IMG/VR virus record: IMGVR_UViG_3300044627_003494
Span: 1-31,162 of that record
Length of the DNA stretch: 31,162 nucleotides
Strand: one strand, 5' to 3'
Origin: a virus
Shown one piece after another: positions 2,303 to 31,162 of this stretch. The translations under genes were made by a program, and so were the position numbers. The notes under the pieces were generated by a model, which was not told where the DNA came from, searched no databases, and saw only the letters and a program-made list of their open reading frames with translations. Each line of letters opens with the position of its first letter. The stretch's first letter is position 1.

Positions 2303-2950
2303 ATGAAACTATTCTGCGACATTAACGAGGAAATTCAAGTTCTAACTGAAGAGAACGAACCGGGTAAAAAAAACTACTTTATTGAAGGTATCTTCCTGAT
2401 GTGCGACCAAAAGAATCGCAACGGTCGTGTCTATACCTTTGAAATGATGAACAAGAAGGTTAATGAGTATAACAACAGTTTTGTAAAGCAAAAGAGAGCG
2501 TTCGGTGAATTGGGACACCCCGAGGGCCCAACCATCAACCTAGAGCGTGTCTCACATATGATTACTGACCTTTACTCCGATAAGAAGAACTTCATCGGTA
2601 GAGCCAAAATCATGGATACCCCATACGGTAAAATTGTTAAAAATTTGATTGATGAGGGTGCAAAACTAGGCGTTTCAAGCCGTGGTATCGGTTCTTTGGA
2701 AGAAAAGAACGGCGTAAACTATGTGAAAGACGATTATCAGTTAGCCACGGCTGCGGATATTGTAGCCGACCCTTCCGCTCCAGAAGCCTTTGTGAGAGGC
2801 ATAATGGAAGGCAAGGAATGGATTTGGGAAAGTGGTAGACTGGTAGAAAAAGACCTAGAAGAAATTAAAAAGAACATTCAAAACGCCTCTTCTCGTAAAC
2901 TAGAAGAAGCAAAAATGAAAGCATTCGAAAAGTTTTTACGAAATCTCTGA
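2303..2950 (+). CDS. gp21: Prohead core scaffold protein and protease (gp21)
   Basis: This is the T4-type prohead maturation protease (peptidase family S80/U9). It degrades the scaffold and trims capsid and internal proteins after (L/I)-x-E sites. At 215 aa it matches T4 gp21 in length. Visible blocks are NRNGRVYTFEMMNKKVNEYN (residues 38-57), the catalytic-His block GELGHPEGP with H72, and the catalytic-Ser block LGVSSRGIGS with S125/S126. An ADIVADPSAPEAFV block near residue 155 is also typical. AAAGGGAG precedes the ATG. Its specificity matters here because several proteins later in the window start with a decapeptide ending in (L/I)-x-E. Confidence 0.95.
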   Translation: MKLFCDINEEIQVLTEENEPGKKNYFIEGIFLMCDQKNRNGRVYTFEMMNKKVNEYNNSFVKQKRAFGELGHPEGPTINLERVSHMITDLYSDKKNFIGRAKIMDTPYGKIVKNLIDEGAKLGVSSRGIGSLEEKNGVNYVKDDYQLATAADIVADPSAPEAFVRGIMEGKEWIWESGRLVEKDLEEIKKNIQNASSRKLEEAKMKAFEKFLRNL

Positions 2951-2999: not shown

Positions 3000-4106
3000 A
3001 TGGACTCATTTAAGAACGAAGAAGTAGAAGAAATCCTCGAAGAAGAGGAAACCGCAACCGAAGCCGAAGAAACTGCTTCGGAAGAAGTAGTTGTAACAGA
3101 TGAAGACACCATCGAAGAGGATTCGGCTGCTACTTTGAAGGCAAATGTTGCCGCAAAGCAAGCCAAAGGCGACAAGACTAACTTGAAGTCTGCTCCTACT
3201 GCTGCTGGTTCTTCAAAGTATGCTGGTCTTTACAAGGATGGAACTGGCAAGGGTGCTGTTGTTCCTGAACCTGTTGCTACAGACACGGCTGCTTCTGGTG
3301 ATAAGCAAATGAAAAATGTTGATGGAAAGCGTTCGGGTAAAGTTGAATCTGTTCAAGTTCATATGGACGCTATGTTCAATGGAGAAGAACTAAGTGAAAA
3401 CTTCAAGACTAAGGCCTCTACCATTTTTGAAACTGCTCTCAATGAGCGCGTTCAAGCAATCGAAGCCGAAATGAAAGCGGAATACGAGAATCGTCTCATC
3501 GAACAAACCGAAACGATGAAGACTGAACTCACTCAGCAACTCGACTCTTACCTCTCATATGTTGTAGAGGAATGGATGGAAGAAAACAAACTCGCTGTGG
3601 AGAAGGGTCTACGGACCGAAATCGCTGAAGAATTTATTGAAGGTCTTCGCGGTCTCTTCTTGCAGCACAACATTGAAGTTCCACAGGGCAAGACTGATTT
3701 GCTAGACGAAATGGCAGAAAAGGTTGAAGTCCTAACCGCTTCATTGAATGAAGAAATCAATAAGAGTCTAGAACTAAAAACGAAAATTGCTGAACTAGAA
3801 AGAAAAGAACTAGTTGCAAGCATGAGTGAGGGTCTTGTTGATACAGACAAAGATCGTTTCTTAAAGTTAGCAGAAGGTGTTGGCTTCGATAACAACACAG
3901 AATTCCGCTCGAAACTAGAAACTATCCGCGAATCTTACTTTGGAAATTCTGGAAAGTCATTCCTTCAAGAAGAAACGAAAGATGACATAACGGATGCAGA
4001 AAATGCTCCAACAAATCACGAAGAAATTTTGAGTGAGTCGATGGAAGCATATTCACAAATGTTGTCTCGCCTAAGCCGTAACAAGGCACAAAGCAAGAAA
4101 AACTAA
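3000..4106 (+). CDS. gp22: Prohead core scaffold protein (gp22)
   Basis: This 368-residue protein is the main internal scaffold around which gp23 assembles; it is later digested by gp21. It lies between protease and capsid genes as in all T4-like phages. The N-terminal 45 residues are extremely acidic (EEVEEILEEEETATEAEE). A low-complexity linker follows, and the central part (about 125-275) is a long charged coiled coil with few aromatics (QAIEAEMKAEYENRLIEQTE). The C-terminus has a SMEAYSQMLSRLSR motif typical of gp22. The RBS is AAGGAG. Antisense open frames within this gene are composition shadows. Confidence 0.9.
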   Translation: MDSFKNEEVEEILEEEETATEAEETASEEVVVTDEDTIEEDSAATLKANVAAKQAKGDKTNLKSAPTAAGSSKYAGLYKDGTGKGAVVPEPVATDTAASGDKQMKNVDGKRSGKVESVQVHMDAMFNGEELSENFKTKASTIFETALNERVQAIEAEMKAEYENRLIEQTETMKTELTQQLDSYLSYVVEEWMEENKLAVEKGLRTEIAEEFIEGLRGLFLQHNIEVPQGKTDLLDEMAEKVEVLTASLNEEINKSLELKTKIAELERKELVASMSEGLVDTDKDRFLKLAEGVGFDNNTEFRSKLETIRESYFGNSGKSFLQEETKDDITDAENAPTNHEEILSESMEAYSQMLSRLSRNKAQSKKN

Positions 4107-4153: not shown

Positions 4154-5557
4154 ATGGAACTTACTATTTCAGAAGCCTTACAGAGTAAGTGGAAGCCAGT
4201 GCTTGAGCACTCAGAACTTCCTGACATCTCTGATCCATATCGCAAAGCAGTAACCACGATTCTTCTAGAGAATCAGCAACAATATCTACGCGAAGATGGC
4301 CCAGCCAACAGTTCAGCCGATCTTCCAGGCAATGCAAACGGCAATATTGCTAAGTGGGACCCAATTCTCATTTCGCTAGTTCGCCGCGCTATGCCAAACC
4401 TAATCGCATACGATGTATGCGGCGTTCAGCCAATGAGTGGCCCAACTGGTCTTATCTTTGCTCTACGCAGTCGTTACAACGATCAGTTCGGCAATGAAGC
4501 ACTCTTCCAAGAAGCCAACAGCCGCTTCTCAGGTAAGGCTGCTACCGGTCTAACTGGCGTAGGTTTAGGTCAAACCGCTAACTTCGGTGGCGTAACAGCA
4601 ACCGATACTGATCCGTTCTATAACGGTGTCGGTGCTGGTTTCACCGCAGGCAACTTTGGTCTAGACACCAACGGCGATCCATTCTTGGGCACAGCAATGA
4701 GCACAAACACTGGCGAATCGCTTGGTTATCCAAACGGCTCACAAGCCGCAGGCTCACAGTTTGCACAAATGGCATTCTCAATCGAGAAGACCACTGTGAC
4801 TGCTCAGACCCGTGCGTTGAAGGCAGAATACACAATGGAATTGGCACAAGACTTGAAGGCAATTCACGGTCTTGACGCTGAAACCGAACTCGCCAACATC
4901 TTGTCGAGTGAAATTCTTGCTGAAATTAACCGCGAAGTCGTTCGTCGCATCTATGTGTCAGCCAAGTTGGGTGCTCGCGCTGGTCTAACTCAGACCACAG
5001 GCGTGTTCGACTTGAATGTTGACTCAAACGGTCGTTGGTCGGTCGAGAAGTTCAAGGGTCTGCTCTTCCAAATGGAGCGCGAGTGCAATCAAATTGCCAA
5101 GGAAACCCGTCGTGGTAAGGGCAACTTCGTTCTCTGCTCGGCAGATGTGGCAAGTGCTCTAAGCATGGCAGGCGTTCTTGACTACGCTCCAGCCCTCTCA
5201 ACCAACCTCAATGTTGACGATACAGGCAACACCTTCGCTGGTGTTCTCAACGGTCGTCTCCGCGTCTACATCGACCCATACGCTTCACAGACAGCAACTC
5301 ACGAGTTCTTCTGCGTTGGCTATAAGGGTTCGAGCCCATACGATGCTGGTCTCTTCTACTGCCCATATGTTCCGCTACAAATGGTTCGTGCAGTTGGTGA
5401 GAACTCATTCCAGCCAAAGATTGGCTTCAAGACTCGTTACGGAATGATTCACAACCCATTCGTTCTAAATTCGAGTGGCAATGTGACCAGTACTTTGGAC
5501 GACACAGTTCGTCGCAACATGTACTATCGTATCGTCAAGGTAACAAACCTCTTCTGA
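4154..5557 (+). CDS. gp23: Major capsid protein (gp23)
   Basis: This 467-residue HK97-fold protein forms the head hexamers. The N-terminus (ISEALQSKWKPVLEH), the block AKWDPILISLVRRAMPNLIA (residues 66-85), the block CGVQPMSGPTGLIFALRSRY, and the C-terminal GFKTRYGMIHNPF are hallmarks of gp23. The pro-region before the first conserved capsid block contains QYLRED; gp21 would be predicted to cut after E47 (L-R-E), in keeping with its (L/I)-x-E rule (inference). Codons are more GC-rich than in most neighbours, as expected for a highly expressed gene. AGGAG lies 9 nt before the ATG. A strong terminator follows. Confidence 0.97.
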   Translation: MELTISEALQSKWKPVLEHSELPDISDPYRKAVTTILLENQQQYLREDGPANSSADLPGNANGNIAKWDPILISLVRRAMPNLIAYDVCGVQPMSGPTGLIFALRSRYNDQFGNEALFQEANSRFSGKAATGLTGVGLGQTANFGGVTATDTDPFYNGVGAGFTAGNFGLDTNGDPFLGTAMSTNTGESLGYPNGSQAAGSQFAQMAFSIEKTTVTAQTRALKAEYTMELAQDLKAIHGLDAETELANILSSEILAEINREVVRRIYVSAKLGARAGLTQTTGVFDLNVDSNGRWSVEKFKGLLFQMERECNQIAKETRRGKGNFVLCSADVASALSMAGVLDYAPALSTNLNVDDTGNTFAGVLNGRLRVYIDPYASQTATHEFFCVGYKGSSPYDAGLFYCPYVPLQMVRAVGENSFQPKIGFKTRYGMIHNPFVLNSSGNVTSTLDDTVRRNMYYRIVKVTNLF

Positions 5558-13582: not shown

Positions 13583-14452
13583 GTGAAAACATTTAAACAC
13601 TATCTTGAAGAAAAACTAATTATACCAGGTCAAGGAAAACGATACGGTCAAGTTGTCTTTTTGGCTGGCGGTGCAGGTTCGGGTAAGGATTTTGCTGTAG
13701 CCAATTTTATAGACTCCACAGACTACAAAATTCTTGATCCAGACGCGGTAAAAGGAGCGTATTTAAAGTGGAACGAACTCCAAAACAAGTATCCTGAACT
13801 TAGAGGTAGAGACCAAAGAAATCCTGAGGATGCCGACTTTGTTCATAGGTTTTTGGGAAATCAAGTTGGACTAGACGATAAAATATTGAGTAGTTTCTTT
13901 TTTGGTTTGATGCATAAAACAGATAAAACCACGCTTCCCAACATTTTGTTTAACAGAACTTTCAAAACAAAAGCAGATTTTGAACGATTACTTCCTAGTC
14001 TAATTTCGGTTGGTTATAAACGAGAAGATATGCACTTAATTTGGGTGCTAACAAACTACAAAGTTGCAATTCAAGCAAACCTCGGAAGATCTAGAACAGT
14101 TCCAACAACCGTATTGATTAAAACACATGGTGGCGCAGCACAAACCATGAAGAGTTTTTTGTTTGATAACTATCCATCTAATCTAATAAATGGAGATGCG
14201 TATGTGATTCTTGGAGGTGAAGAAAATACCGTATTTTTCAAACCCCCACAAGGCGCGTCAACCACAAGACAGGTGGTTGCTGGAGGCGAAATAATTCCAA
14301 AGCCTAGAGTGGTTTCAAAATTTCAGTATGTTAAAGTTAAAGATGCAAACCATCCGTTTAAACCTGCTGTGGCTTTATCGAACATTGTTCTCAGATGGAT
14401 ACTTCAAAATTCTCCCGATCAAGAAGCAATACAAAAATATCTGAATCAATGA
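13583..14452 (+). CDS. P-loop kinase-like protein with capsid-targeting N-terminus
   Basis: This 289-residue protein begins MKTFKHYLEEK, which matches the T4 capsid targeting sequence (MKTYQEFIAE) and ends in the gp21-type site L8-E9-E10. After it come QVVFLAGGAGSGKDFAVANF (Walker A GGAGSGKD, residues 29-36) and DPDAVKGAYLKW, as in zeta-toxin-like and small-molecule kinases. A conserved R-containing stretch (LFNRTFKTK) and LIWVLTNY follow. The start is GTG 13583, placed by the late promoter and the tag. Substrate unknown. If the tag works, this enzyme is packed in the head and injected; the late promoter agrees with that. Confidence 0.7.
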   Translation: MKTFKHYLEEKLIIPGQGKRYGQVVFLAGGAGSGKDFAVANFIDSTDYKILDPDAVKGAYLKWNELQNKYPELRGRDQRNPEDADFVHRFLGNQVGLDDKILSSFFFGLMHKTDKTTLPNILFNRTFKTKADFERLLPSLISVGYKREDMHLIWVLTNYKVAIQANLGRSRTVPTTVLIKTHGGAAQTMKSFLFDNYPSNLINGDAYVILGGEENTVFFKPPQGASTTRQVVAGGEIIPKPRVVSKFQYVKVKDANHPFKPAVALSNIVLRWILQNSPDQEAIQKYLNQ

Positions 14453-15185: not shown

Positions 15186-15797
15186 ATGGACAAACATTCA
15201 AAACTGTTTTTAAAACATGTCCGTGAACATTTATCTGAATATGGTGGCGAATTACTTTTTGGTAGAGGAAAAAAAGTTAATTGCGGAGATGGTTGTCGTT
15301 CTGTTGGATATTTTTCAGATTACCCAATGCAAATTCGTGTGGCTAAAAAATCTAGAGATCCAATCGCCACAGTAGCACACGAATATGCACATTTTTTGCA
15401 ATGGTTGAACACACCACAACAAATCATACAAGCAGATGATCGAGCAAGTTTGCTTGTGTTTGACTGGTTAACGGGAAAAAATTACGATAAAAAAGAAGTT
15501 CAAAAAGCATTTTGTCGTGTCATGGTAATGGAACGAGATGCAGAACGCCGTACTGTTGAATTGATTAAAAAATTTAATTTGAATGTTGATATTGACAAAT
15601 ATATTCGACAAGCAAATTGTTACATTTACATGCATTGGATTATGAGAGAGCGGCGTTCTTGGAAATATCGAGTTGGGGCTTCAGATCCTATGGAATCTAA
15701 AAATATAATTTCACAAATGCCTAACAGTTTTAAAGCAAAATCGGATAAAAAGATTCCGTCGCATATCCGAAAAGCACTTCTTGCTTATTTTCCTTGA
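15186..15797 (+). CDS. HEXXH zinc-metallopeptidase-like protein
   Basis: This 203-residue protein contains TVAHEYAHFLQWLN, a clear H-E-x-x-H zinc site near residues 64-68, and MERDAERRTVELIKKF about 50 residues later, which can supply the third ligand (Glu) as in ImmA/IrrE-like or SprT-like folds. An upstream block VNCGDGCRSVGYFSDYPMQI precedes the site. There is no signal peptide, so it is probably cytoplasmic or virion-borne. Substrate unknown; cleavage of a host regulator is possible but not shown. RBS is AAAGGAAA. Confidence 0.65.
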   Translation: MDKHSKLFLKHVREHLSEYGGELLFGRGKKVNCGDGCRSVGYFSDYPMQIRVAKKSRDPIATVAHEYAHFLQWLNTPQQIIQADDRASLLVFDWLTGKNYDKKEVQKAFCRVMVMERDAERRTVELIKKFNLNVDIDKYIRQANCYIYMHWIMRERRSWKYRVGASDPMESKNIISQMPNSFKAKSDKKIPSHIRKALLAYFP

Positions 15798-18316: not shown

Positions 18317-19000
18317 TCAAATCAATTGCAAAATAGATTTAACGATATCTACTTGGCAATCTATTCTTTTTGCTAAAGTGTAAGAGCCGTCTGCTGGAGT
18401 TTCTATTTGTATGGCGGTTTTGCAGCCCAAATTAACAGCATACTCGCAAAACATTCCTGGTTTTGATTGATATTTTGAATCTTTTGATGTGGGGAAATGA
18501 TTTGTTATTTTTCTTTGAATCATTTCTTCAACTTCAATAGAACTATTCCAGGCATAAAAATAAGAAACAAACCTTTTAGCATCTTCTTGCAAAGACAAAA
18601 AACAGGATTCGCCCAATTTAACTATATCAGAAATATTATTTTGTAAAATTTTTCCTTCATCGGTATTTGCTGAAGGCCAACCACGGTCAACATTTTTTCC
18701 ATCGTAATTTCTGTGTTGACGAGTTAAAAAACATGCTGGCGACACAAATGGAATAAAAGAAGTTTTCGGTAATTGCTGACATAAAATTTTACTTGCATTC
18801 CAACCAGCAGGTTCGTCGCCTTGCCATCCAGAAGTTATAAGAGTTCCGTTTGAATTTTTAGATTCTAACAAAAAAATGCTCTCAGAGTTTAGTTTGCCCA
18901 ATTCACGAACATGATGAGTGTTTTTGGTTAGATAAACAAATTCTGAAATCTCTTTTTCATATTCTCTTAGTTGGTCGCTGTGGTTGAAAAAAGTTTTCAT
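18317..19000 (-). CDS. AstE/M14-like protein with both zinc His replaced by Gln
   Basis: This 227-residue protein has the succinylglutamate desuccinylase / M14 carboxypeptidase layout. LITSGWQGDEPAG is the usual G-x-H-G-D/N-E-P-A-G zinc loop, but with Q60 for His; E63 is kept. RNYDGKNVDRGWP corresponds to the D-x-N-R-x-F-P substrate loop (here D105-R106). FLSLQEDAKRF corresponds to the L-H-E-D zinc loop, with Q138 for His. AIQIETPADGS keeps the Glu (E200) expected of the catalytic base. Both Gln codons are CAA. Either the metal site is altered or the protein is a binding pseudoenzyme. It is last in the minus operon, with ATGA overlap to the gene before it. Confidence 0.6.
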   Translation of the reverse strand: MKTFFNHSDQLREYEKEISEFVYLTKNTHHVRELGKLNSESIFLLESKNSNGTLITSGWQGDEPAGWNASKILCQQLPKTSFIPFVSPACFLTRQHRNYDGKNVDRGWPSANTDEGKILQNNISDIVKLGESCFLSLQEDAKRFVSYFYAWNSSIEVEEMIQRKITNHFPTSKDSKYQSKPGMFCEYAVNLGCKTAIQIETPADGSYTLAKRIDCQVDIVKSILQLI

Positions 19001-22894: not shown

Positions 22895-23078
22895 AATTCC
22901 CGTGATTCGTTTGGAAGCACTTCCACTCACAGAAACTTGTGTGAAGTGTTCTAGCGTTCGCACCTACAAGGGCTTTATGGATTGGCAGCACAAGACTGCA
23001 CCCGACCTTGTAATGGTCAATCCTGATGACAGAGAGAATCTGCGTCGGGCTCAAGCAATTTCTGACCGAAGGAGATAA
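22866..23078 (+). CDS. DksA/TraR-type C4 zinc-finger protein
   Basis: This 70-residue protein starts MRPCIKCGIEIPVIRLEALP and has C4-x2-C7-x17-C25-x2-C28, the spacing and sequence (CxxCG..I...RLEA.P....CvxC) of the DksA/TraR zinc finger. DksA family members bind RNA polymerase through its secondary channel and retune host transcription. The coiled-coil arm of DksA is missing; instead a basic C-terminal tail (DDRENLRRAQAISDRRR) follows. GAGG lies 7 nt before the ATG. An upstream ATG (22809) in frame lacks an RBS. An early host-transcription role is a reasonable inference. Confidence 0.65.
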   Translation: MRPCIKCGIEIPVIRLEALPLTETCVKCSSVRTYKGFMDWQHKTAPDLVMVNPDDRENLRRAQAISDRRR

Positions 23079-23079
23079 C

Positions 23080-23541
23080 ATGTCATTTGTATCAATGTTA
23101 TATGGTGAAGGCAATAAACCATATTCCATTTCTTATAGTGGTGGGTCAACCTACAGCACCCAAACTTATTGTGAACTGCCTCAATGGAAACTTGCGAACA
23201 CCATGACTACGGAGTTTGCCGCAAGTATTAATGGTGCTACACATACACAACCACTTGCCGAATTCAATGGTAGCGTGTTCAACGGATTCGCAGAAGGACT
23301 TTGGATTTACCGAGTGTTTCTGAACGGAGAACTTGTAGCCACTTATCAGTTTCAAGACCAAGCATTCTGCATTCCTATTGAATTTGACCGTGTGGAAGGT
23401 GTGTGTATGGGTGTTTCTCTTTCTCCTTCTTTTGCGTTTGACAATTACGAACCACCACCTCCTATTCCGTCACCAGCGTCCATTGTCGTCTTGATTTGTT
23501 CCGCCCTTTTTTCTCTACGAAAGAACTCTCGCAATGCGTAA
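23080..23541 (+). CDS. Tail-anchored protein with PEP-CTERM-like end, no signal peptide
   Basis: This 153-residue protein has a beta-rich body (GGSTYSTQTYCELPQWKLAN, EGLWIYRVFLNGELVATYQF) and a C-terminal 29 residues made of PPPPIPSPAS, a hydrophobic helix IVVLICSALFSL and a basic RKNSR end. That tripartite end resembles the PEP-CTERM sorting signal and shares P-x-PAS and LICSA with the next protein. Unlike true PEP-CTERM proteins it lacks a visible signal peptide, so it may instead be a tail-anchored membrane protein. The start is set by AAGGAG. It overlaps the next gene by 8 nt. Confidence 0.6.
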   Translation: MSFVSMLYGEGNKPYSISYSGGSTYSTQTYCELPQWKLANTMTTEFAASINGATHTQPLAEFNGSVFNGFAEGLWIYRVFLNGELVATYQFQDQAFCIPIEFDRVEGVCMGVSLSPSFAFDNYEPPPPIPSPASIVVLICSALFSLRKNSRNA

Positions 23542-24088
23542 TTCACTACTCGCCTCTACCGTGTTTGCTCTCGCAGCAACGAATGTCTCTGAAGCCACTT
23601 TGATTTCGTTCTCGCAGATTATTACAAACAATACTGCAAGCACTCAAAGTTATGAAATCATTCAATCCGCGCCCACCTCAATCAATTCTGCTACAGCAGG
23701 TATGCGTGGCTCGTTGAGCATTGTGCTTACTGATTTCAATAGAAATGGTGCTATCTTTCAGTCCGATGGTGGTAATCTTTACACCGCATTTGCAAATTCC
23801 ACGCTAGTTCGTTCTGCGTTTGTTCCTACTGGCGGGTTTCTTCTAACCGCACTTCCTCGTGGAATGGCTTCGTCAGACAATCATTTTGGCACACCTGTTT
23901 TGGAGCCGATGTCACCTTCGCTTGGAACCATTAACAGCATTGAAATGCGATGGAACTTCCGTTTGTCTGCGGGAGACCAAGTTGCTATTGCGGGAACTTT
24001 TGAAGTTGCTAGTGTTCCTGCACCTGCGTCTGCCGCCATCTTGATTTGTTCGGCAATCTCAGCCCGACGAAGAAGGACACATCAATGA
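23534..24088 (+). CDS. Secreted PEP-CTERM domain protein
   Basis: This 184-residue protein has an N-terminal Sec signal peptide (MRNSLLASTVFALAATNVSEA, cleavage likely near residue 21), a beta-rich, nearly Cys-free body with many Ser/Thr/Asn, and a C-terminal VPAPASAAILICSAISARRRR (161-181). The last is a textbook PEP-CTERM signal: P-x-P motif, hydrophobic helix, Arg cluster. Exosortase hosts use it to anchor or release surface proteins. The phage has no exosortase in this window, so it would use the host's. Early, coupled expression suggests change of the cell surface, for example blocking further phage adsorption (inference). Confidence 0.75.
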   Translation: MRNSLLASTVFALAATNVSEATLISFSQIITNNTASTQSYEIIQSAPTSINSATAGMRGSLSIVLTDFNRNGAIFQSDGGNLYTAFANSTLVRSAFVPTGGFLLTALPRGMASSDNHFGTPVLEPMSPSLGTINSIEMRWNFRLSAGDQVAIAGTFEVASVPAPASAAILICSAISARRRRTHQ

Positions 24089-25004: not shown

Positions 25005-25012
25005 CCTAAATA
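25005..25012 (+). promoter_or_regulatory. Late promoter (CCTAAATA) of the tagged-protein operon
   Basis: CCTAAATA, 18 nt before the cupin ATG, followed by TAGGAGG. It drives six overlapping genes, four of them with capsid-targeting-like N-termini. Confidence 0.65.
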
Positions 25013-25030: not shown

Positions 25031-25378
25031 ATGTATACTGAAGAGCGTCCTTGGGGCAATTTTACAATTTTATACGAAGACCATAACATGAAGGTGAAGC
25101 AAATTATTGTTCATGCAGGTCAAAGATTGAGTTACCAATATCATAAGCACCGCCAAGAGCGATGGACAATTGTGGAAGGTGAAGGAGTATTCACCTTGAA
25201 TGGCGTAGACCGTGCGGTGCGTTCTGGTGATGTTTTAAGCATTGCGGTTGGTGACGCACATCGCATCAGAAATACAGGCAAAGGCAACTTGATTTTTGTG
25301 GAAGTGCAGTTGGGCGAATCTTTTGCTGAAGACGACATCTATCGTATAGAGGACGATTATAACCGCGCTAGCACATGA
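25031..25378 (+). CDS. Cupin, mannose-6-phosphate isomerase type II-like
   Basis: This 115-residue single-domain cupin matches the C-terminal isomerase domain of GDP-mannose pyrophosphorylase/PMI proteins: ERPWGNFTILYEDHNMKVKQ, then a metal site with H-x-H (YQYHKHRQERWTIVEGEG) and a second cupin motif GDAHRIRNTGKGNLIFVEVQ. It is the first gene of the late operon and lacks the MKSFK tag of its neighbours. Similar stand-alone cupins are common in phages and may modify sugars. RBS AGGAGG is the best in the region. Confidence 0.8.
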   Translation: MYTEERPWGNFTILYEDHNMKVKQIIVHAGQRLSYQYHKHRQERWTIVEGEGVFTLNGVDRAVRSGDVLSIAVGDAHRIRNTGKGNLIFVEVQLGESFAEDDIYRIEDDYNRAST

Positions 25379-25398
25379 AATCATTCAAGCACCATCTC
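25375..25398 (+). repeat. Capsid-targeting tag repeat, copy 1
   Basis: First codons of the gene at 25375. The first 23 bases are identical to those at 25785 and differ by one base from those at 26555. Confidence 0.8.
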
Positions 25399-25788
25399 TC
25401 AGAACAGGATGCAACTCCAAAACCTCGTGGCGAGTATTTCGTCAGTCGCTTTAACATTAGCGGAACTGTTGTGAGTGCTGTGGCTGTATACGAAAGACCC
25501 ATCAAGAACTACAAGTATAAAACTAAAGTTTGGAGATGGCGGGTTCGTATAAAGACAAGTGAGGGGTGGATGCTGATGGGCTTTATCGGAAATGGACAAC
25601 GACAGGAAGAACTGCCTCCGCTTCGTGTTGGAGATGTTGTGGAGATTAGAGACCTTGTTTTGTCTAGAGTCACGGGTGGAGATTGGGCACAACAAAACAA
25701 GGTAATCGGCAAACCTCTTGATTACCGTTCCAACCTGTTCTCTCGTCAACTACACGGCAAGATTAAAAGAGGTGCAACCTCTGTATGA
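25375..25788 (+). CDS. Tagged late protein, possibly OB-fold
   Basis: This 137-residue protein begins MKSFKHHLSEQ, matching the T4 capsid targeting sequence in length and in its L8-x-E10 cleavage site. The body has strongly alternating strands (KVWRWRVRIKTSEGWMLMGF, LRVGDVVEIRDLVLSRV) as in OB-type nucleic-acid-binding domains, and ends in basic residues. The start overlaps the cupin stop (ATGA). Predicted to be packed in the head, cut after E10 and injected; the activity is unknown. Confidence 0.65.
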   Translation: MKSFKHHLSEQDATPKPRGEYFVSRFNISGTVVSAVAVYERPIKNYKYKTKVWRWRVRIKTSEGWMLMGFIGNGQRQEELPPLRVGDVVEIRDLVLSRVTGGDWAQQNKVIGKPLDYRSNLFSRQLHGKIKRGATSV

Positions 25789-25808
25789 AATCATTCAAGC
25801 ACCATCTT
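25785..25808 (+). repeat. Capsid-targeting tag repeat, copy 2
   Basis: First codons of the gene at 25785; same DNA over 23 bases as copy 1. Confidence 0.8.
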
Positions 25809-26558
25809 GCAGAAGCAATCGCAAATCCATCTATCTGTGATTTGCTTAAACTGCCTACCGCTAAAGCGTTTATTGAGCGACTTGAAATATCCAAAGACCT
25901 GAAAGCGTATTGGAATGCGTTAAACCTGTGGTTTGACCAAAGTGGCGACACAAAACGGTTCATGGGCAAGATTGTTGAGATGGGTATGTGCCCAAACAAA
26001 GCGAAATGGGCTTCTTGGTCTGGCAAAGGATATCGCGGATTAACCAAACCAAAAGAGTGGGCAAAAAAGTTAAAGTATACTGGCGAAACTGTGGTTAAGG
26101 GCGAATACCTTTATTTGGTGGCAAATGGAATCTATCAAAGTCGATATACAGCCCAATCTTGGACAAACGATTTTGAGGTTGCAGTATCGTTTGCTAACAG
26201 CGACCGAGACATTCCTGTAGTAATTGAAATTGAACTAACTCGTGAAAATACTTTGTTCTCTCCTGAATCAAGCGGAACGCTTGGTGGTTTCGGAGAATCG
26301 GAAATTATACGAGTAGGCAATAAACCCACAAAAGTTAAGGTGTATGTGAATATAGGATTTATGATTCAATTCTTTTGCTACAGGATATTGGGAAACGGAG
26401 GAACTAAAGGAGTTCCTAAAGCAGAACAAACCTCTTGGTGGACGAAACAATTTGAAGGATTATTTTCTCAACTTGGTGATGAAAAGTTTGTGAAAGACCT
26501 TATGGCTAATCCTAAAATCAAAGCAATAATTAAACGAGAAGCAAAGGTTAGCATATGA
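25785..26558 (+). CDS. Tagged Alt-like ADP-ribosyltransferase
   Basis: This 257-residue protein carries MKSFKHHLAEA and then an R-S-E class ADP-ribosyltransferase fold. Visible motifs are R84 in KGYRGL, S125-W-T127 in TAQSWTNDFEVAVSFAN (the STS strand), and E171-S-E173 in FGESEIIRVG (the E-x-E catalytic loop). T4 Alt, the known relative, is packed by such a tag, injected with DNA and modifies host RNA polymerase at once. The same role is inferred here; the target is unknown. It starts in an ATGA overlap. The segment after the E-x-E holds a hydrophobic stretch (NIGFMIQFFCYRIL). Confidence 0.72.
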   Translation: MKSFKHHLAEAIANPSICDLLKLPTAKAFIERLEISKDLKAYWNALNLWFDQSGDTKRFMGKIVEMGMCPNKAKWASWSGKGYRGLTKPKEWAKKLKYTGETVVKGEYLYLVANGIYQSRYTAQSWTNDFEVAVSFANSDRDIPVVIEIELTRENTLFSPESSGTLGGFGESEIIRVGNKPTKVKVYVNIGFMIQFFCYRILGNGGTKGVPKAEQTSWWTKQFEGLFSQLGDEKFVKDLMANPKIKAIIKREAKVSI

Positions 26559-26578
26559 AATCATTCAAGCATCATCTC
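26555..26578 (+). repeat. Capsid-targeting tag repeat, copy 3
   Basis: First codons of the gene at 26555; one base differs from copies 1 and 2 over the first 23 (CAC to CAT, silent). Confidence 0.8.
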
Positions 26579-27025
26579 ACCGAACTGTTTGACCAACCGT
26601 TTCCGTTTGCCTCGGTGTCTATTGTAAATGGAGATGTGGTGAAGTATGTGTATAGAAACGATGCTACCTTTGTGGTTATAATGTTTTTTGACCTTGGTAA
26701 CGGAGGTTGGGATGTGATATTCTCACGAAACGGCAAGGTTGCTGTAACAGGACAAGGCGATGCTGGTCGTGTGTTTGCTTCCGTATTAGACGCATTCCAA
26801 CGATTCTTGCGAGACTATAAGGATAAAGCAAATACCATTAGTTTCACTGCTGAAAAGCAGGAACTAAATCCTGCTACAAGCAAGTATACTACAGACTCTC
26901 GTGTTACGCTGTATAAGGCTATGATTAAACGATATGCGGAAGCAAACGGATATCGGATGCGAAGCAACATTCCGATATCAGGAATGGGTAAAGGCAAACA
27001 ACTGTTTGTGTTAGAGAAGATATGA
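26555..27025 (+). CDS. Tagged late protein of unknown fold
   Basis: This 156-residue protein begins MKSFKHHLTEL. The body has an alpha/beta look: VVIMFFDLGNGGWDVIFSRN, ASVLDAFQRFLRDYKDKANT, then SRVTLYKAMIKRYAEANGYR and a final LFVLEK. The strand-helix order, and the last helix with YAEANGY, recall phage proteins with GNAT-like halves, but no acetyl-CoA motif is clear. It starts and ends in ATGA overlaps. Predicted cargo by its tag. Confidence 0.6.
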   Translation: MKSFKHHLTELFDQPFPFASVSIVNGDVVKYVYRNDATFVVIMFFDLGNGGWDVIFSRNGKVAVTGQGDAGRVFASVLDAFQRFLRDYKDKANTISFTAEKQELNPATSKYTTDSRVTLYKAMIKRYAEANGYRMRSNIPISGMGKGKQLFVLEKI

Positions 27026-27153
27026 AGTCTTTTAAACAACACATCTCTGAGAAATGGACGCAATCGTATAAGCGTAGCATTGATTGTAGCCGACCAAAAG
27101 GCTTTTCGCAGCGAGCACATTGTCAAGGCAAAAAGAAGCGAGCAGGCAAATGA
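27022..27153 (+). CDS. Tagged 43-residue basic peptide (SIDC...AHC type)
   Basis: This 43-codon gene encodes MKSFKQHISEK followed by YKRSIDCSRPKGFSQRAHCQ and a GKKKRAGK end. I8-S9-E10 fits the gp21 site. The S-I-D-C-x-x-P-K-G-F-S-Q-x-A-H-C block is a recurrent short motif in large phage and viral proteins, with two Cys and one His that could hold a metal. Overlaps are ATGA on both sides. The peptide is very basic and could bind DNA in the capsid (inference). Confidence 0.65.
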   Translation: MKSFKQHISEKWTQSYKRSIDCSRPKGFSQRAHCQGKKKRAGK

Positions 27154-28085
27154 AAGACTTTGAAGTATTCTCGGAGGAAACCAACAATGCTCGCACCGAG
27201 CGGATTGTAAAGAATCTGTTGCCTGCCATTAGAAACGGTGATATGAACGCGCAAATATGTGCGATTGCATCACTTGAATTTGGAGACTTCATGCACTTCC
27301 TACGAGCACTTGGTGGAAATATAGGCCCATCAGGAACTGTGATAAATCTTGGTTCAACTGGCGCACACATCTACACGCTTATAAATGAAAAAGAATCAAA
27401 GGATATAATGTATTTTTGTGCTTATCTGCGTAATCATCTGTCCGCTTTTTTTGGTGATTTAGCAACCACAGCGTCGGTAAACTTGAAAAATCGCTACTAT
27501 CCTACATTTAAATCCATGTTGGATTGTTCATCTCGTAAATCTTGGACAAAACCAGAATCAGGGTTTGTGTATCGTGGAAAGGCTACAGGCATTTCATATC
27601 TTGCAAAAATGGGTGAGTGGCGCACCGAAGGCGAGTATTCGGTATGCAAAGGCAGTTACACAAGTCAGTATCCCATGCAATCTTGGTCGTATAGCAGAAC
27701 AAAAGCGGAACTGTTTGCTGATACGCGAATCGGTGATATATCATTATGGATAGACCGTCTTGGTGAGATTGGTGGAATAGACAAAGAGGCAGGCGGCGAT
27801 TGGCACAAACAGGTATTGAAACAAACTCAACCGCTAGGCATACAACGAGGCGATTTGGCTGTGCCTGTGGTGATTCGGTGTCCTGTGAATCCACGAGAAT
27901 TCTTGTTCTCTGCGGACGCAAGCGATAAAATTAAAGTAGCCTTGAAACTGTTCACCAAGAATACGAAAGAACGAGAAACGGTGCGAGTTTCTAGTCAACC
28001 TGTTGCTGTGGAATACATGGTTAAAAATGTTAAGAGTGTTGACATGAAAACAGCGATTGCACAATGGCGAGAAGCCAACGGATAA
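27150..28085 (+). CDS. Second ADP-ribosyltransferase-like protein
   Basis: This 311-residue protein has R142 in FVYRGKATG, S178-W-S180 in YPMQSWSYSRTKAELFAD (STS strand), and E274-R-E276 in NTKERETVRVSSQP (E-x-E loop), so an R-S-E class ART. The order and spacing match the 257-aa ART two genes upstream, but the sequence is otherwise quite different. Its own start (MKDFEVFSEET) is only a poor version of the capsid tag: it has F-S-E but not L-x-E at 8-10. It overlaps the basic tagged peptide by ATGA. In-frame codons upstream to 27120 lack an RBS. Confidence 0.65.
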   Translation: MKDFEVFSEETNNARTERIVKNLLPAIRNGDMNAQICAIASLEFGDFMHFLRALGGNIGPSGTVINLGSTGAHIYTLINEKESKDIMYFCAYLRNHLSAFFGDLATTASVNLKNRYYPTFKSMLDCSSRKSWTKPESGFVYRGKATGISYLAKMGEWRTEGEYSVCKGSYTSQYPMQSWSYSRTKAELFADTRIGDISLWIDRLGEIGGIDKEAGGDWHKQVLKQTQPLGIQRGDLAVPVVIRCPVNPREFLFSADASDKIKVALKLFTKNTKERETVRVSSQPVAVEYMVKNVKSVDMKTAIAQWREANG

Positions 28086-28156: not shown

Positions 28157-29911
28157 ATGCAATCTAATAGAATTCAGCACTTTTTATACACAAACAATCA
28201 TCCAAAAGGGTTGAATTACGAAACTGGAATGTTGTGGTCTTTAGTGTATCACGAGGGAGCAGAATATCCACATTTACCAACTATGTTGCCTAGTTATGTT
28301 GGTAATTTAAGAGACTCTTTAACAAAAATGATGGCTGATGATGCTGTATCTTCAGAATGTATGAAAAAATTCAAAGATGCTTATTGCAATTATGAACAAA
28401 AATTGGCTGATGTAAATGAAAAAATTAGACAAGCAAGAGATACATTTGTTGATGATTCTATAAATGCAGTAACGGACTGGATTGGAACTTTAAGAGATAT
28501 ATTTCCAATTCCAGAAATGTATGAAAATTTTATAAATTCACTTGCAGGAACTGAAGGAAGCGGTTCTGATATTTATACCGATCCAAATTACTTGATAGCA
28601 ATAGCAATATCGGGTGGTTGGAAAAATCCTGAAGATAATCCAATATTGGCTATAGCCAATCAACTTATGACGGACCTGGCTGCCAAAGAAGAACAATATC
28701 AAAATTTAAATGCTGAATTTAGCAGACTAAGAACTGAAATAAGAAGATTAGAGCAAATGCGACTCAGAGGAGGCTCTGCTTGGGGAGAAGACTCTGAAAT
28801 GCTATTAAGATCCTTAAGAAGACAAGCAAATACAATTGGAAGCAAACTTGTTTCTATAAAAAATTCAGTAAAAGCAATTTCTGTTGAACTTTTATCGCTT
28901 GTAAGAAATAATCCAAATTTATTCGGCGGCCCTGCAACAGTACCAACATCAAATTTTAGAAACACTATTAATTTTTTCATTAAAACTTTAATGTCGAGAC
29001 AAAGCGATACATATTTTGGCGGAGAGAATTATTGGAGAAGAGGACAGATTTATATTCCAAGCGCAAAAGATTTTCTTAAATTTTTTGGTTTACTTGGAGC
29101 AGCAATTGGATTGTTTATTGCAGGATTAAAACTAGCGTTAATAGCATTAGGTGTTCTTGTTGCTGCTGCTGGAATTTATGCAATAGCATCATTACTTGCC
29201 GGATTAGAAGGTCTAAAACAAAAAATATCACAAGCATGTGAAAGATGGGAAAGAACGGTTCGTCCGCTGGAAACAGTTGACAGATATAGAGCGTCTAGTG
29301 AATATTATCAGGATCTTCAAGACTTATTAGATGGTGGCTGCTGCGATAAAGATGGAATTAATTGCAATGGTGCTTCAGGAGATGCTGATGGAGGAGGCGA
29401 TGCTTCATCAGGTTCTGGAGGTAGCCACGGTGGAGGATCTTCTTGTACTCAAGGAGTTGGTTTAACTCTATTGATGGGCAACAAGTACATTCCAACTTAT
29501 TACGATAATATAGATCAGAATTATTTCAATAAAAACACTGAATCCGTTTCTGGAGAAATTGGATTTAAGGATAATTGTCCTCCCATGTTTGGCGCAAAGG
29601 GTTCTCCTGATTGCACCGAATGCGGAACCATTGCATCAGACGAACAAGGGAATCCAACATTTTATCCTGATAATTCATGGAAAGGGTGTTCTGATCGTAG
29701 AACTATTGTGGGAGATTCAAATGAACCAAATACTCCAAACATACCTATTCAAGCCCATACATGCGGTTGTGGTTGGCCTAAAGGAACTCAACCTCCAGAA
29801 CCAACTGTTAGTCCTTGTGATTTAATAGGAAATCTTTACCAAGGAATTGAAGGATTTATTGAGGATATCAGGAAACTAATTCCAACAACCGTATTTGCAG
29901 GAGTAGAATAA
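28157..29911 (+). CDS. Large membrane/coiled-coil protein with Cys-rich end, copy 1
   Basis: This 584-residue protein has an N-terminal block shared with the next gene (FLYTNNHPKGLNYETGMLW, EGAEYPHLPTMLPSYVG), a helical part with coiled coil (residues 175-255), a hydrophobic region of one or two spans (about 313-350, FLKFFGLLGAAIGLFIAGLK), a Gly/Ser linker (SGSGGSHGGGSS) and a C-terminal domain with over ten Cys in CxxC-like pairs (CCDKDGINC, CTEC, HTCGCGW). No signal peptide. It has a late promoter, so it is probably a virion or lysis-stage envelope protein. Not recognised. Confidence 0.6.
   Translation: MQSNRIQHFLYTNNHPKGLNYETGMLWSLVYHEGAEYPHLPTMLPSYVGNLRDSLTKMMADDAVSSECMKKFKDAYCNYEQKLADVNEKIRQARDTFVDDSINAVTDWIGTLRDIFPIPEMYENFINSLAGTEGSGSDIYTDPNYLIAIAISGGWKNPEDNPILAIANQLMTDLAAKEEQYQNLNAEFSRLRTEIRRLEQMRLRGGSAWGEDSEMLLRSLRRQANTIGSKLVSIKNSVKAISVELLSLVRNNPNLFGGPATVPTSNFRNTINFFIKTLMSRQSDTYFGGENYWRRGQIYIPSAKDFLKFFGLLGAAIGLFIAGLKLALIALGVLVAAAGIYAIASLLAGLEGLKQKISQACERWERTVRPLETVDRYRASSEYYQDLQDLLDGGCCDKDGINCNGASGDADGGGDASSGSGGSHGGGSSCTQGVGLTLLMGNKYIPTYYDNIDQNYFNKNTESVSGEIGFKDNCPPMFGAKGSPDCTECGTIASDEQGNPTFYPDNSWKGCSDRRTIVGDSNEPNTPNIPIQAHTCGCGWPKGTQPPEPTVSPCDLIGNLYQGIEGFIEDIRKLIPTTVFAGVE
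29404..29512 (+). repeat. 109-bp near-identical repeat, copy 1
   Basis: Encodes the Gly/Ser linker and the CTQGVGLTLLMGNKYIPTYY block. It matches 31014-31122 at 108 of 109 positions (C29425 is T31035), though flanking sequence in the two genes is strongly diverged. Confidence 0.9.
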
Positions 29912-29913
29912 AA

Positions 29914-31162
29914 ATGAATAGCAGAATTCAATTATTTTTATATCAAAATACTATTCCCACAGGATTGAACTATGAAAGTGGAATGTTGTTGTCTACTGTA
30001 TACTTTAAAGGTGCGGAATATCCCCATATAGACATGTTTAATCTGCCAAATTATGTTGGAAAAAGTATAGACTCTATTACAAAAATGATGAGTGGTATTA
30101 ATAGCGACTCTATATCCTCAGAATGCCAAGAAAAATTTAAAAATGCTTATTGTGGGTTTGAAAAAAATTTAGAGGCAATACAATCTTCAATTGATAAAGC
30201 AAACGAAAACTTTATTGACGATCTTATTAATTGTCTTTTAAATTGGGCTCGTTGTTTTGGTTCACTTATAGGAGTAAATCTATTATCAGAAGCATTTGAA
30301 GATATGCTTGAATCTGGAACAGAAGTAGGAATTACTGCTACTCTTCCAGCCGCAATTCTTGCAAGAATTAAAGTCCTAGAAGGAAGGGTTTTAGCAGAAT
30401 ATAATGCAACTATGGCATATAATATTCCTTTTGAAAATGAAATCGAGTATTGCGTAGACAGTATTGACGAACTTCAACAGCAGTTGTTTGATAGAAATCG
30501 CAGACTATCAGCAGCAGAGAGAAGGGCTGTGGCTAAAGTAATAGATGACTTACGAAGAAGATTGGAAATTGCGAGATCACAACTTCGCGATCCAACTGTA
30601 TATTCTGCCGCAGTACAGCAAGAAGTAGAAGAAATTGGAAGACTAATGAAAGAACACCTAAAAAATGGTAGTTCAGGAGTTTCAGGATTTTTAAACAAAG
30701 CCAAAGATTTTATTAGTACATTTTTTTCAAAAATTAAAGTATTACTTGCTACTTTGGCATCATCATTAGCAAGATTGGCTCCTTGGCTCGCTGTATCAGT
30801 ATTGATTGCTTGTAATTTAAAACTTATACAATCTTTTAGTGCCGCTTGTCAAAAAAGATTGACAAGAGTTCGAGATCTTGAACAGATAGACAGATACAAT
30901 GCGGCAAACACATACTATGACGGTATGGAAGAAATAATAAAATCGGGATGTTGTGATAAACCCTCTCCTTGCATTGGTGCATCTGATAATAATGATGGTT
31001 CAGGTGGAGATTATTCATCAGGTTCTGGAGGTAGTCACGGTGGAGGATCTTCTTGTACTCAAGGAGTTGGTTTAACTCTATTGATGGGCAACAAGTACAT
31101 TCCAACTTATTACGATAATATAAATTCAAATTACATGAATATGAATAATGAACCAACGCCTG
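29914..31162 (+). CDS. Large membrane/coiled-coil protein, copy 2 (3' truncated)
   Basis: This frame is open from ATG 29914 to the window edge (416 codons). It repeats the layout of copy 1: N-terminal FLYQNTIPTGLNYESGMLL and GAEYPHIDMFNLPNYVG, coiled coil (YCVDSIDELQQQLFDRNRRL), a hydrophobic span (LAPWLAVSVLIACNL), a CCDK motif, the Gly/Ser linker and the LLMGNKYIPTYYDNI block. The middle is shorter. It starts 2 nt after the copy 1 stop with only a weak RBS, so coupling is likely. The end of the gene lies outside the window. Confidence 0.6.
   Translation, partial: MNSRIQLFLYQNTIPTGLNYESGMLLSTVYFKGAEYPHIDMFNLPNYVGKSIDSITKMMSGINSDSISSECQEKFKNAYCGFEKNLEAIQSSIDKANENFIDDLINCLLNWARCFGSLIGVNLLSEAFEDMLESGTEVGITATLPAAILARIKVLEGRVLAEYNATMAYNIPFENEIEYCVDSIDELQQQLFDRNRRLSAAERRAVAKVIDDLRRRLEIARSQLRDPTVYSAAVQQEVEEIGRLMKEHLKNGSSGVSGFLNKAKDFISTFFSKIKVLLATLASSLARLAPWLAVSVLIACNLKLIQSFSAACQKRLTRVRDLEQIDRYNAANTYYDGMEEIIKSGCCDKPSPCIGASDNNDGSGGDYSSGSGGSHGGGSSCTQGVGLTLLMGNKYIPTYYDNINSNYMNMNNEPTP
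31014..31122 (+). repeat. 109-bp near-identical repeat, copy 2
   Basis: Second copy of the segment at 29404-29512, in frame and at the same place in the paralogous protein. Confidence 0.9.

What the first reader, a model, noticed from the sequence alone, without database searches (positions are those of the whole stretch)
25375..28085. An operon of proteins with a capsid-targeting tag: a likely injected effector set
Seen: four adjacent late genes start MKSFK-x-H-(L/I)-x-E (SE, AE, TE, SE), with Glu at residue 10. Known: T4 Alt and internal proteins start MKTYQEFIAE, which sends them into the prohead core and is cut by gp21 after (L/I)-x-E. Length, M-K start, aromatic at 4, aliphatic at 8 and Glu at 10 all coincide, and gp21 is encoded in this window. 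Inference: these proteins are packed in the head and delivered at infection. The bodies differ completely (OB-like, ART, unknown alpha/beta, basic peptide), as expected for effectors sharing only a delivery tag.
Basis: partly seen in the sequence, partly recalled or inferred. Interest (0 to 1): 0.87.

Follow-up and report, generated by a model that had tools for sequence, protein, structure and literature searches.

The report
Phage operon with capsid-packaging N-terminal tags
A T4-like environmental phage carries an operon of mostly unrelated, basic proteins that share a short N-terminal tag, the kind T4 uses to load proteins into its head and cut them free, so they are probably carried in the virus particle and injected into the host at infection; the same tag turns out to mark dozens of unrelated protein families in other environmental phages.

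Summary
Four adjacent genes (25375-27153) start MKSFK[HQ]H(L/I)xE; a zeta-toxin-like kinase at 13583 starts MKTFKHYLEE, and a fifth operon gene (27150) has a degenerate MKDFEVFSEE start. At DNA level the similarity covers only codons 1-10. The window encodes a gp21 (S77) protease, scaffold and gp23, and gp23's L-x-E processing site is conserved in the clade. Tests favour a capsid-targeting propeptide. It heads 56 families with no detectable similarity. Residue 11, not selected for, is Ala/Ser in 24 of 56 families (13% expected, p=5e-8); residues 12-20 are not enriched. In cyanophage S-CREM2, three virion-detected non-structural enzymes carry the tag, against 0 of 126 undetected proteins examined (p=6.5e-4). 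Best reading: T4-type internal head proteins, packaged, cut after Glu10 and probably injected, including two ADP-ribosyltransferase-like proteins. Not shown for these proteins: presence in virions, cleavage, injection, activity. His at residue 7 departs from T4. The mechanism is known; the cargo and its breadth are new.

The parts
2303..2950 (+). gp21-type prohead core serine protease (S77), the enzyme expected to remove the tag
   Evidence: PF03420 E=3.6e-32, phrog_207 E=8.9e-79
3000..4106 (+). gp22-type scaffold/core protein, net charge -37, the expected partner of the basic tagged proteins in the prohead core
   Evidence: PF25623 T4_CASP E=6.4e-66; net charge; partnership inferred from T4 (PMC9026906)
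4154..5557 (+). gp23 major capsid protein with predicted processing site LRE47|D
   Evidence: PF07068 E=1.2e-145; aliphatic-x-E conserved near the T4 FLTE65|A position across relatives
13583..14452 (+). P-loop zeta-toxin-like kinase with tag MKTFKHYLEE (GTG start)
   Evidence: PF06414 24.6 bits (cut-off 22.3), phrog_5268 E=1.9e-42; L-x-E before the folded part kept in 5 of 5 homologues
25005..25012 (+). CCTAAATA, candidate late-promoter element ahead of the operon
   Evidence: 6 matches in the window, all on + strand, 1.26 expected, 0 of 100 shuffles reach 6; promoter role inferred
25031..25378 (+). untagged cupin (MannoseP_isomer type), first gene of the transcription unit
   Evidence: PF01050 E=9.1e-25; overlaps the next gene by 4 nt
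25375..25788 (+). gene 1: tag MKSFKHHLSE, basic 137-aa protein of unknown fold
   Evidence: pI 10.3; no family or relative
25785..26558 (+). gene 2: tag MKSFKHHLAE, ADP-ribosyltransferase-like (YRG, QSWT, ESE motifs)
   Evidence: 31% identity to gene 5 over the motif region, E=5e-5; motif residues aligned
26555..27025 (+). gene 3: tag MKSFKHHLTE, then LFDQ; relative of a phage virion-protein family
   Evidence: phrog_16075 E=5.4e-7; relative in phage PA5oct annotated structural protein, ESI-MS/MS
27022..27153 (+). gene 4: tag MKSFKQHISE, 43-aa very basic peptide (33 aa after predicted cleavage, pI 10.8)
27150..28085 (+). gene 5: degenerate tag MKDFEVFSEE, second ADP-ribosyltransferase-like protein (VYRG, QSWS, ERE motifs)
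   Evidence: tag resembles MKDFDSFLEE of the virion-detected S-CREM2 SAM hydrolase

Best explanation
The shared first ten residues are a capsid targeting sequence (CTS) of the T4 type. The tagged proteins are probably made late, are drawn by the tag into the prohead core (residues 4 and 7 being the main targeting positions in T4), and are released when the phage's own gp21 protease cuts after (L/I)-x-Glu10. They then stay in the head with the DNA and probably enter the host cell at infection, where they act before any phage gene is expressed. The cargo here is two ADP-ribosyltransferase-like proteins (probably modifying host proteins, as T4 Alt does), a zeta-toxin-like kinase, a relative of a known virion-associated protein, and two small very basic proteins. 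Shown here: the tags, the protease and scaffold, the gp23 site, the cross-family statistics and the published virion data on relatives. Inferred: cleavage, packaging and injection of these particular proteins, and their activities.
For: (a) The tag is modular: DNA identity is confined to codons 1-10, and elsewhere the same tag heads 56 body families with no similarity at E<=1e-3. (c) Residue 11, unconstrained by the search, is Ala/Ser in 24 of 56 families against 13% expected (p=5e-8); residues 12-20 are not enriched, as expected of a protease site after Glu10. (d) Virion data: in S-CREM2 (mass spectrometry, PMC10665884), SAM hydrolase MKDFDSFLEE, kinase VKRFDAFLTE and cytidylyltransferase MKNFSSFLTEA are in the virion and tagged, against 0 of 126 undetected non-structural proteins in the stretches read (Fisher p=6.5e-4). 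The cytidylyltransferase family T4-GC190 was detected in S-SM1 virions (PMC3037559); its P-SSM2 member is tagged, and so is the Syn9 homologue. (e) The window carries S77 protease, T4_CASP scaffold and gp23, with the gp23 L-x-E site conserved in the clade. (f) All tagged window proteins are basic (pI 9.0-10.6), as T4 internal proteins are (PMC9026906). (g) The tag pattern is found in 17 of 32 records, all of them window-like or T4-type, and in 0 of 6 other phages tested; 5 of 6 tag-bearing contigs of 50 kb or more carry S77. (h) L-x-E is kept before the folded part in the kinase family (5 of 5) and the gene 3 family (3 of 3).
Against: No virion data exist for this phage. Residue 7, a targeting position in T4, is His in the four operon tags; His7 was seen in only 2 of 101 tags elsewhere. 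Only gene 2 has Ala/Ser at P1'. Gene 5 lacks the aliphatic residue 8. Virion-detected proteins of S-CREM2 could partly be co-purified contaminants, as its authors say, and several of its virion-detected non-structural proteins lack the tag. One 101-kb tagged contig shows no S77 match. The gene 3 relative in PA5oct lacks the MKSFK part. Several T4-type phages (for example S-PM2, KP27) have no match to the pattern.
Confidence: 0.82

Rival explanations
1. The tag loads the proteins into the prohead core, but they act in head assembly (core filling, charge balance with the acidic scaffold) and not as effectors in the next host.
For: Tagged proteins are basic and the scaffold is very acidic; T4 IPIII affects head morphogenesis (PMC9026906); gene 4 is a 33-aa basic peptide after predicted cleavage.
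Against: Genes 2, 5 and the kinase look like enzymes; tagged families elsewhere include SAM lyase, HicA, GNAT, HD and zeta/AAA kinases, which are host- or defence-directed activities, not core fillers.
Confidence: 0.1
2. The shared start is a 5' gene element (translation coupling, mRNA stability or a recombination hot spot) copied between neighbouring genes, with no role in the protein.
For: The DNA identity of the first 24-30 nt is high in genes 1-3 and every junction is an ATGA overlap.
Against: Tags elsewhere conserve the amino acids with different codons; they occur on isolated genes; residue 11 shows a protein-level Ala/Ser preference; the tag correlates with virion detection in S-CREM2.
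Confidence: 0.03
3. The tag is an N-terminal signal for something else, such as host-membrane or polymerase targeting during the late phase, and the proteins act in the producing cell.
For: No direct data on localisation exist for this phage.
Against: Virion detection of tagged relatives; occurrence in T4-type phages and absence in 6 others; match to the experimentally defined T4 CTS.
Confidence: 0.05

Closest known systems
Phage T4 internal proteins IpI, IpII, IpIII and their capsid targeting sequence
   Same: N-terminal M-K-x-aromatic start with aliphatic-x-Glu at residues 8-10 (IpII, IpIII), basic bodies of unrelated sequence, gp21 protease and scaffold in the same genome
   Different: Residue 7 is His, not Phe, in the operon; no family match links the bodies to IpI-III; four or five tagged genes sit in one ATGA-coupled operon, whereas T4's three lie in two loci (PMC12373910)
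T4 Alt, the injected ADP-ribosyltransferase
   Same: ART-like cargo in a T4-type phage; gene 3 has LTELFD where Alt has ITELFD around the predicted cut
   Different: Alt's start (MELITE) is not the MK[ST]FK type; genes 2 and 5 show no significant profile similarity to Alt or ModB
Virion-associated non-structural proteins of cyanophages (SAM hydrolase, NMNAT/cytidylyltransferase, APH kinase of S-CREM2; T4-GC190 of S-SM1)
   Same: Same N-terminal tag with L-x-E at residues 8-10, on enzymes of different families
   Different: Other enzyme families and hosts; the passages read in those papers do not describe the tag
Polyvalent proteins of Iyer et al. 2017 (PMC5512222)
   Same: Effector-type domains such as ARTs thought to be packaged and injected
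   Different: There the domains are fused in one long polypeptide; here they are separate small proteins each with its own tag

Membership tests
T4-type CTS-bearing internal head proteins | N-terminal propeptide of about 10 residues with (L/I)-x-E ending at residue 10 | tested here: met
   Genes 1-4 and the kinase: LSE, LAE, LTE, ISE, LEE at residues 8-10. Gene 5: SEE, not met for that gene.
T4-type CTS-bearing internal head proteins | Targeting residues 4 and 7 (Tyr and Phe in T4 IPIII) | tested here: inconclusive
   Residue 4 is Phe in all. Residue 7 is His in genes 1-4, Tyr in the kinase, Phe in gene 5; elsewhere Phe/Tyr in 98 of 101 tags and His in 2. Role of residues from PMC9026906.
T4-type CTS-bearing internal head proteins | Cognate gp21 protease cutting after L/I-x-E in the same phage | tested here: met
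   S77 protease in the window; aliphatic-x-E conserved at the gp23 processing position. Cleavage itself not tested.
T4-type CTS-bearing internal head proteins | Basic proteins with unrelated bodies | tested here: met
   pI 9.0-10.6; no detectable similarity among bodies except genes 2 and 5.
T4-type CTS-bearing internal head proteins | Late expression | tested here: inconclusive
   CCTAAATA motif 5' of the operon, enriched and strand-biased in the window; promoter function not shown.
T4-type CTS-bearing internal head proteins | Presence in the virion with a new N-terminus at residue 11 and ejection into the host | not testable with these tools
   Needs virions; only relatives have data.
R-S-E mono-ADP-ribosyltransferases (genes 2, 5) | Arg, Ser and Glu-x-Glu motifs in order | tested here: met
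   YRG / QSW[TS] / E-x-E aligned between the two proteins.
R-S-E mono-ADP-ribosyltransferases (genes 2, 5) | Detectable sequence or fold similarity to a known ART | tested here: inconclusive
   No Pfam, PDB, Alt or ModB match; single-sequence models too poor to compare (pLDDT 40 and 33).
Zeta-toxin-like kinases (13583) | Match to the family profile above its cut-off | tested here: met
   PF06414 24.6 bits against 22.3; phrog_5268 E=1.9e-42.

The most novel reading that the evidence does not exclude
The MK-x-F-x-x-(F/Y)-(L/I)-x-E start is a general delivery code across T4-type phages: it marks a large repertoire of virion-packaged, probably injected effectors (ARTs, SAM lyases, NMNAT-like enzymes, kinases, HicA, GNATs), which can be read directly from sequence and which phages assemble by tagging new genes, including multi-gene effector operons such as this one.
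Probability: 0.6. Interest if true: 0.8.

Novelty: new member of a known kind. Interest (0 to 1): 0.64.

Why it matters
Which phage proteins enter the host with the DNA is mostly unknown outside a few model phages. In T4 such proteins block restriction (IpI-III) or reprogram RNA polymerase (Alt). If the tag is a reliable marker, injected effectors of the abundant T4-type phages of environmental waters can be listed from sequence alone and tested one by one. The S-CREM2 comparison and the residue-11 statistic suggest that it is.

Tried and rejected
Searches for relatives of genes 1, 2, 3 and 5 gave little: none for genes 2, 3 and 5 in viral contigs (gene 1 was not scanned there), none for genes 1, 2 and 5 in named phages. 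Structure predictions of genes 2 and 5 had no alignment and were unusable, so no fold search was run. Profile comparison of genes 2 and 5 with Alt and ModB, and PDB searches, found nothing. PADLOC found nothing. The gp21-flanking loci of close relatives carry few tags; most are short head-module fragments. I considered chance, a 5'-end DNA duplication without protein function, and core-filler roles; the permuted-motif control, the residue-11 statistic and the virion comparison argue against the first two. I rejected the claim that T4 Alt shares MKTYQEFIAE. The upstream-stop position of the tag matches was tried as evidence that they are gene starts, but the permuted control matches behave the same way, so it is not used. 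Literature searches found no paper describing the MKTFK-type tag; the library is open-access only, so a negative there is weak.
Full report
WHAT IS THERE. The window is a 31-kb viral fragment with a T4-type head module: S77 prohead protease 2303-2950, T4_CASP scaffold 3000-4106, gp23 4154-5557. The finding's four genes are exactly as described. They sit in one unit headed by an untagged cupin (25031-25378), and every junction from 25375 to 27150 is a 4-nt ATGA overlap. A CCTAAATA motif, 6 copies in the window all on the + strand against 1.26 expected, lies at 25005 ahead of the cupin; I read it as a likely late promoter element, untested.

THE TAG IS A MODULE. Genes 1-3 share 87-93% of the first 30 nt but only 13-40% of the 30 nt on either side. 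The bodies show no detectable similarity, except that genes 2 and 5 are related (E=5e-5) and share ordered YRG, QSW[TS] and E-x-E motifs, the layout of R-S-E ADP-ribosyltransferases. No known ART is matched by sequence and the structure models were unusable, so 'ART' is a motif-level inference. Gene 3 is related to phrog_16075 and to a PA5oct protein annotated as a structural protein from ESI-MS/MS. All tagged proteins are basic.

WHAT THE TAG IS. In T4 the first ten residues of IPIII suffice for packaging; residues 4 and 7 matter for targeting, 8 and 10 for processing, and gp21 cuts after L/I-x-E (PMC9026906). The window tags agree with this layout at residues 1, 2, 4, 8 and 10; residue 7 is His in the operon, Tyr in the kinase.

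TESTS. (1) A degenerate DNA pattern for MKTFKx[FY][LIMF]xE matched at least 120 stretches in viral contigs, where the scan stopped. A permuted pattern matched 13, none convincing as a gene start. The position of the match behind an upstream stop codon does not separate the two sets; the count and the gene quality do. (2) The fetched contigs hold 103 tagged ORFs on 56 body families with no similarity at E<=1e-3, among them SAM lyase, zeta/AAA kinase, HicA, GNAT, HD and cytidylyltransferase-like proteins. Up to five tagged genes occur in one contig (L164). (3) Residue 11 was not part of any pattern, yet it is Ala or Ser in 24 of 56 family representatives against 13% expected (p=5e-8), with no enrichment at residues 12-20: the signature of a protease site after Glu10. 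(4) In 32 records a looser pattern matched 34 times against 6 for its reverse, with none in T5, P1, SPO1, phiKZ, PA5oct and one 484-kb uncultured phage. Of six tag-bearing contigs of 50 kb or more, five carry S77. (5) The gp23 processing site keeps an aliphatic-x-E motif across the clade near the T4 position.

A TEST ON PUBLISHED VIRION DATA. S-CREM2's virion proteome (PMC10665884, Table 3) lists several enzymes with no structural role. In the two genome stretches read, three of 13 virion-detected non-structural proteins carry the strict tag (SAM hydrolase MKDFDSFLEE, kinase VKRFDAFLTE, cytidylyltransferase MKNFSSFLTEA) and none of 126 undetected ones do (Fisher p=6.5e-4). Two more are near-matches: gp13 MKDLHSFLTE, and the protein annotated Cas9, with LRFASFMAEA at residues 17-26. 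The expression used was written before the S-CREM2 proteins were read, but it is broader than the contig search pattern: Lys/Arg at 2, any residue at 3, an aromatic at 4, an aliphatic at 8, Glu at 10. The genome was not read in full, and the authors themselves warn of possible co-purification. Separately, T4-GC190 was found in purified S-SM1 virions (PMC3037559); its P-SSM2 member starts MKSFSQFLTE, and the Syn9 homologue starts MKKFSAFLSE.

HOW IT MOST LIKELY WORKS. Late-made basic proteins are drawn into the prohead core by the tag, released by gp21 cleavage after Glu10, kept in the head with the DNA and injected. In the new host, the ART-like proteins would modify host proteins, and the kinase and small basic proteins would act on defence or metabolism. 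The packaging and cleavage steps are supported by the comparisons above; injection and the activities are inferred from T4.

LIMITS. No virion data exist for this phage. His7 is unusual (2 of 101 tags elsewhere). Gene 5's tag lacks the aliphatic residue 8. Tagged ORFs in the contig set were taken at the matched ATG and not by a gene finder. Family counts depend on the E<=1e-3 BLAST threshold, and distant relationships may merge some families. The comparison genes came from a crude longest-ORF method. Some T4-type phages in the panel have no match to the pattern, so the tag is not universal among them in this form.

VERDICT. Observation confirmed, with one factual correction on T4 Alt and two further genes added. 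The mechanism is a known one (T4 CTS); the operon and its cargo are new members, and the breadth of the tag in environmental phages is the part a specialist would find most useful.

Noticed in passing
23026-23541 and 23534-24088 (+): Two overlapping ORFs end in PEP-CTERM-like tails (IPSPASIVVLICSALFSLRKNSRNA and VPAPASAAILICSAISARRRRTHQ), which I would not expect in phage proteins.
   Followed up: no
28157-31162: The 584-aa gene at 28157-29911 appears to have a diverged tandem copy running off the window end: direct repeats 70-88% identical at about 1.6-1.8 kb spacing.
   Followed up: partly
18317-19000 (-): ORF starts MKTFFNHSDQLREYE, possibly a longer IpI-type targeting start ending in L-R-E.
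   Followed up: no
15186-15797 (+): Protein with a HEYAH metallopeptidase-like motif and basic charge, near the tagged kinase.
   Followed up: no
L237:967-1131 (-), T4 gene 61.1: T4 gp61.1, annotated hypothetical, starts MKTFKEFIKE, a possible unrecognised CTS.
   Followed up: no
L238:7704-10313 (-), S-CREM2 gp12: Virion-detected protein annotated Cas9 carries LRFASFMAEA near its N-terminus; whether it is really Cas9 was not checked.
   Followed up: partly
L164:5915-9422 (-) and L120:2357-3910 (+): Other contigs with five and four neighbouring tagged genes; nearly all bodies unrelated.
   Followed up: partly
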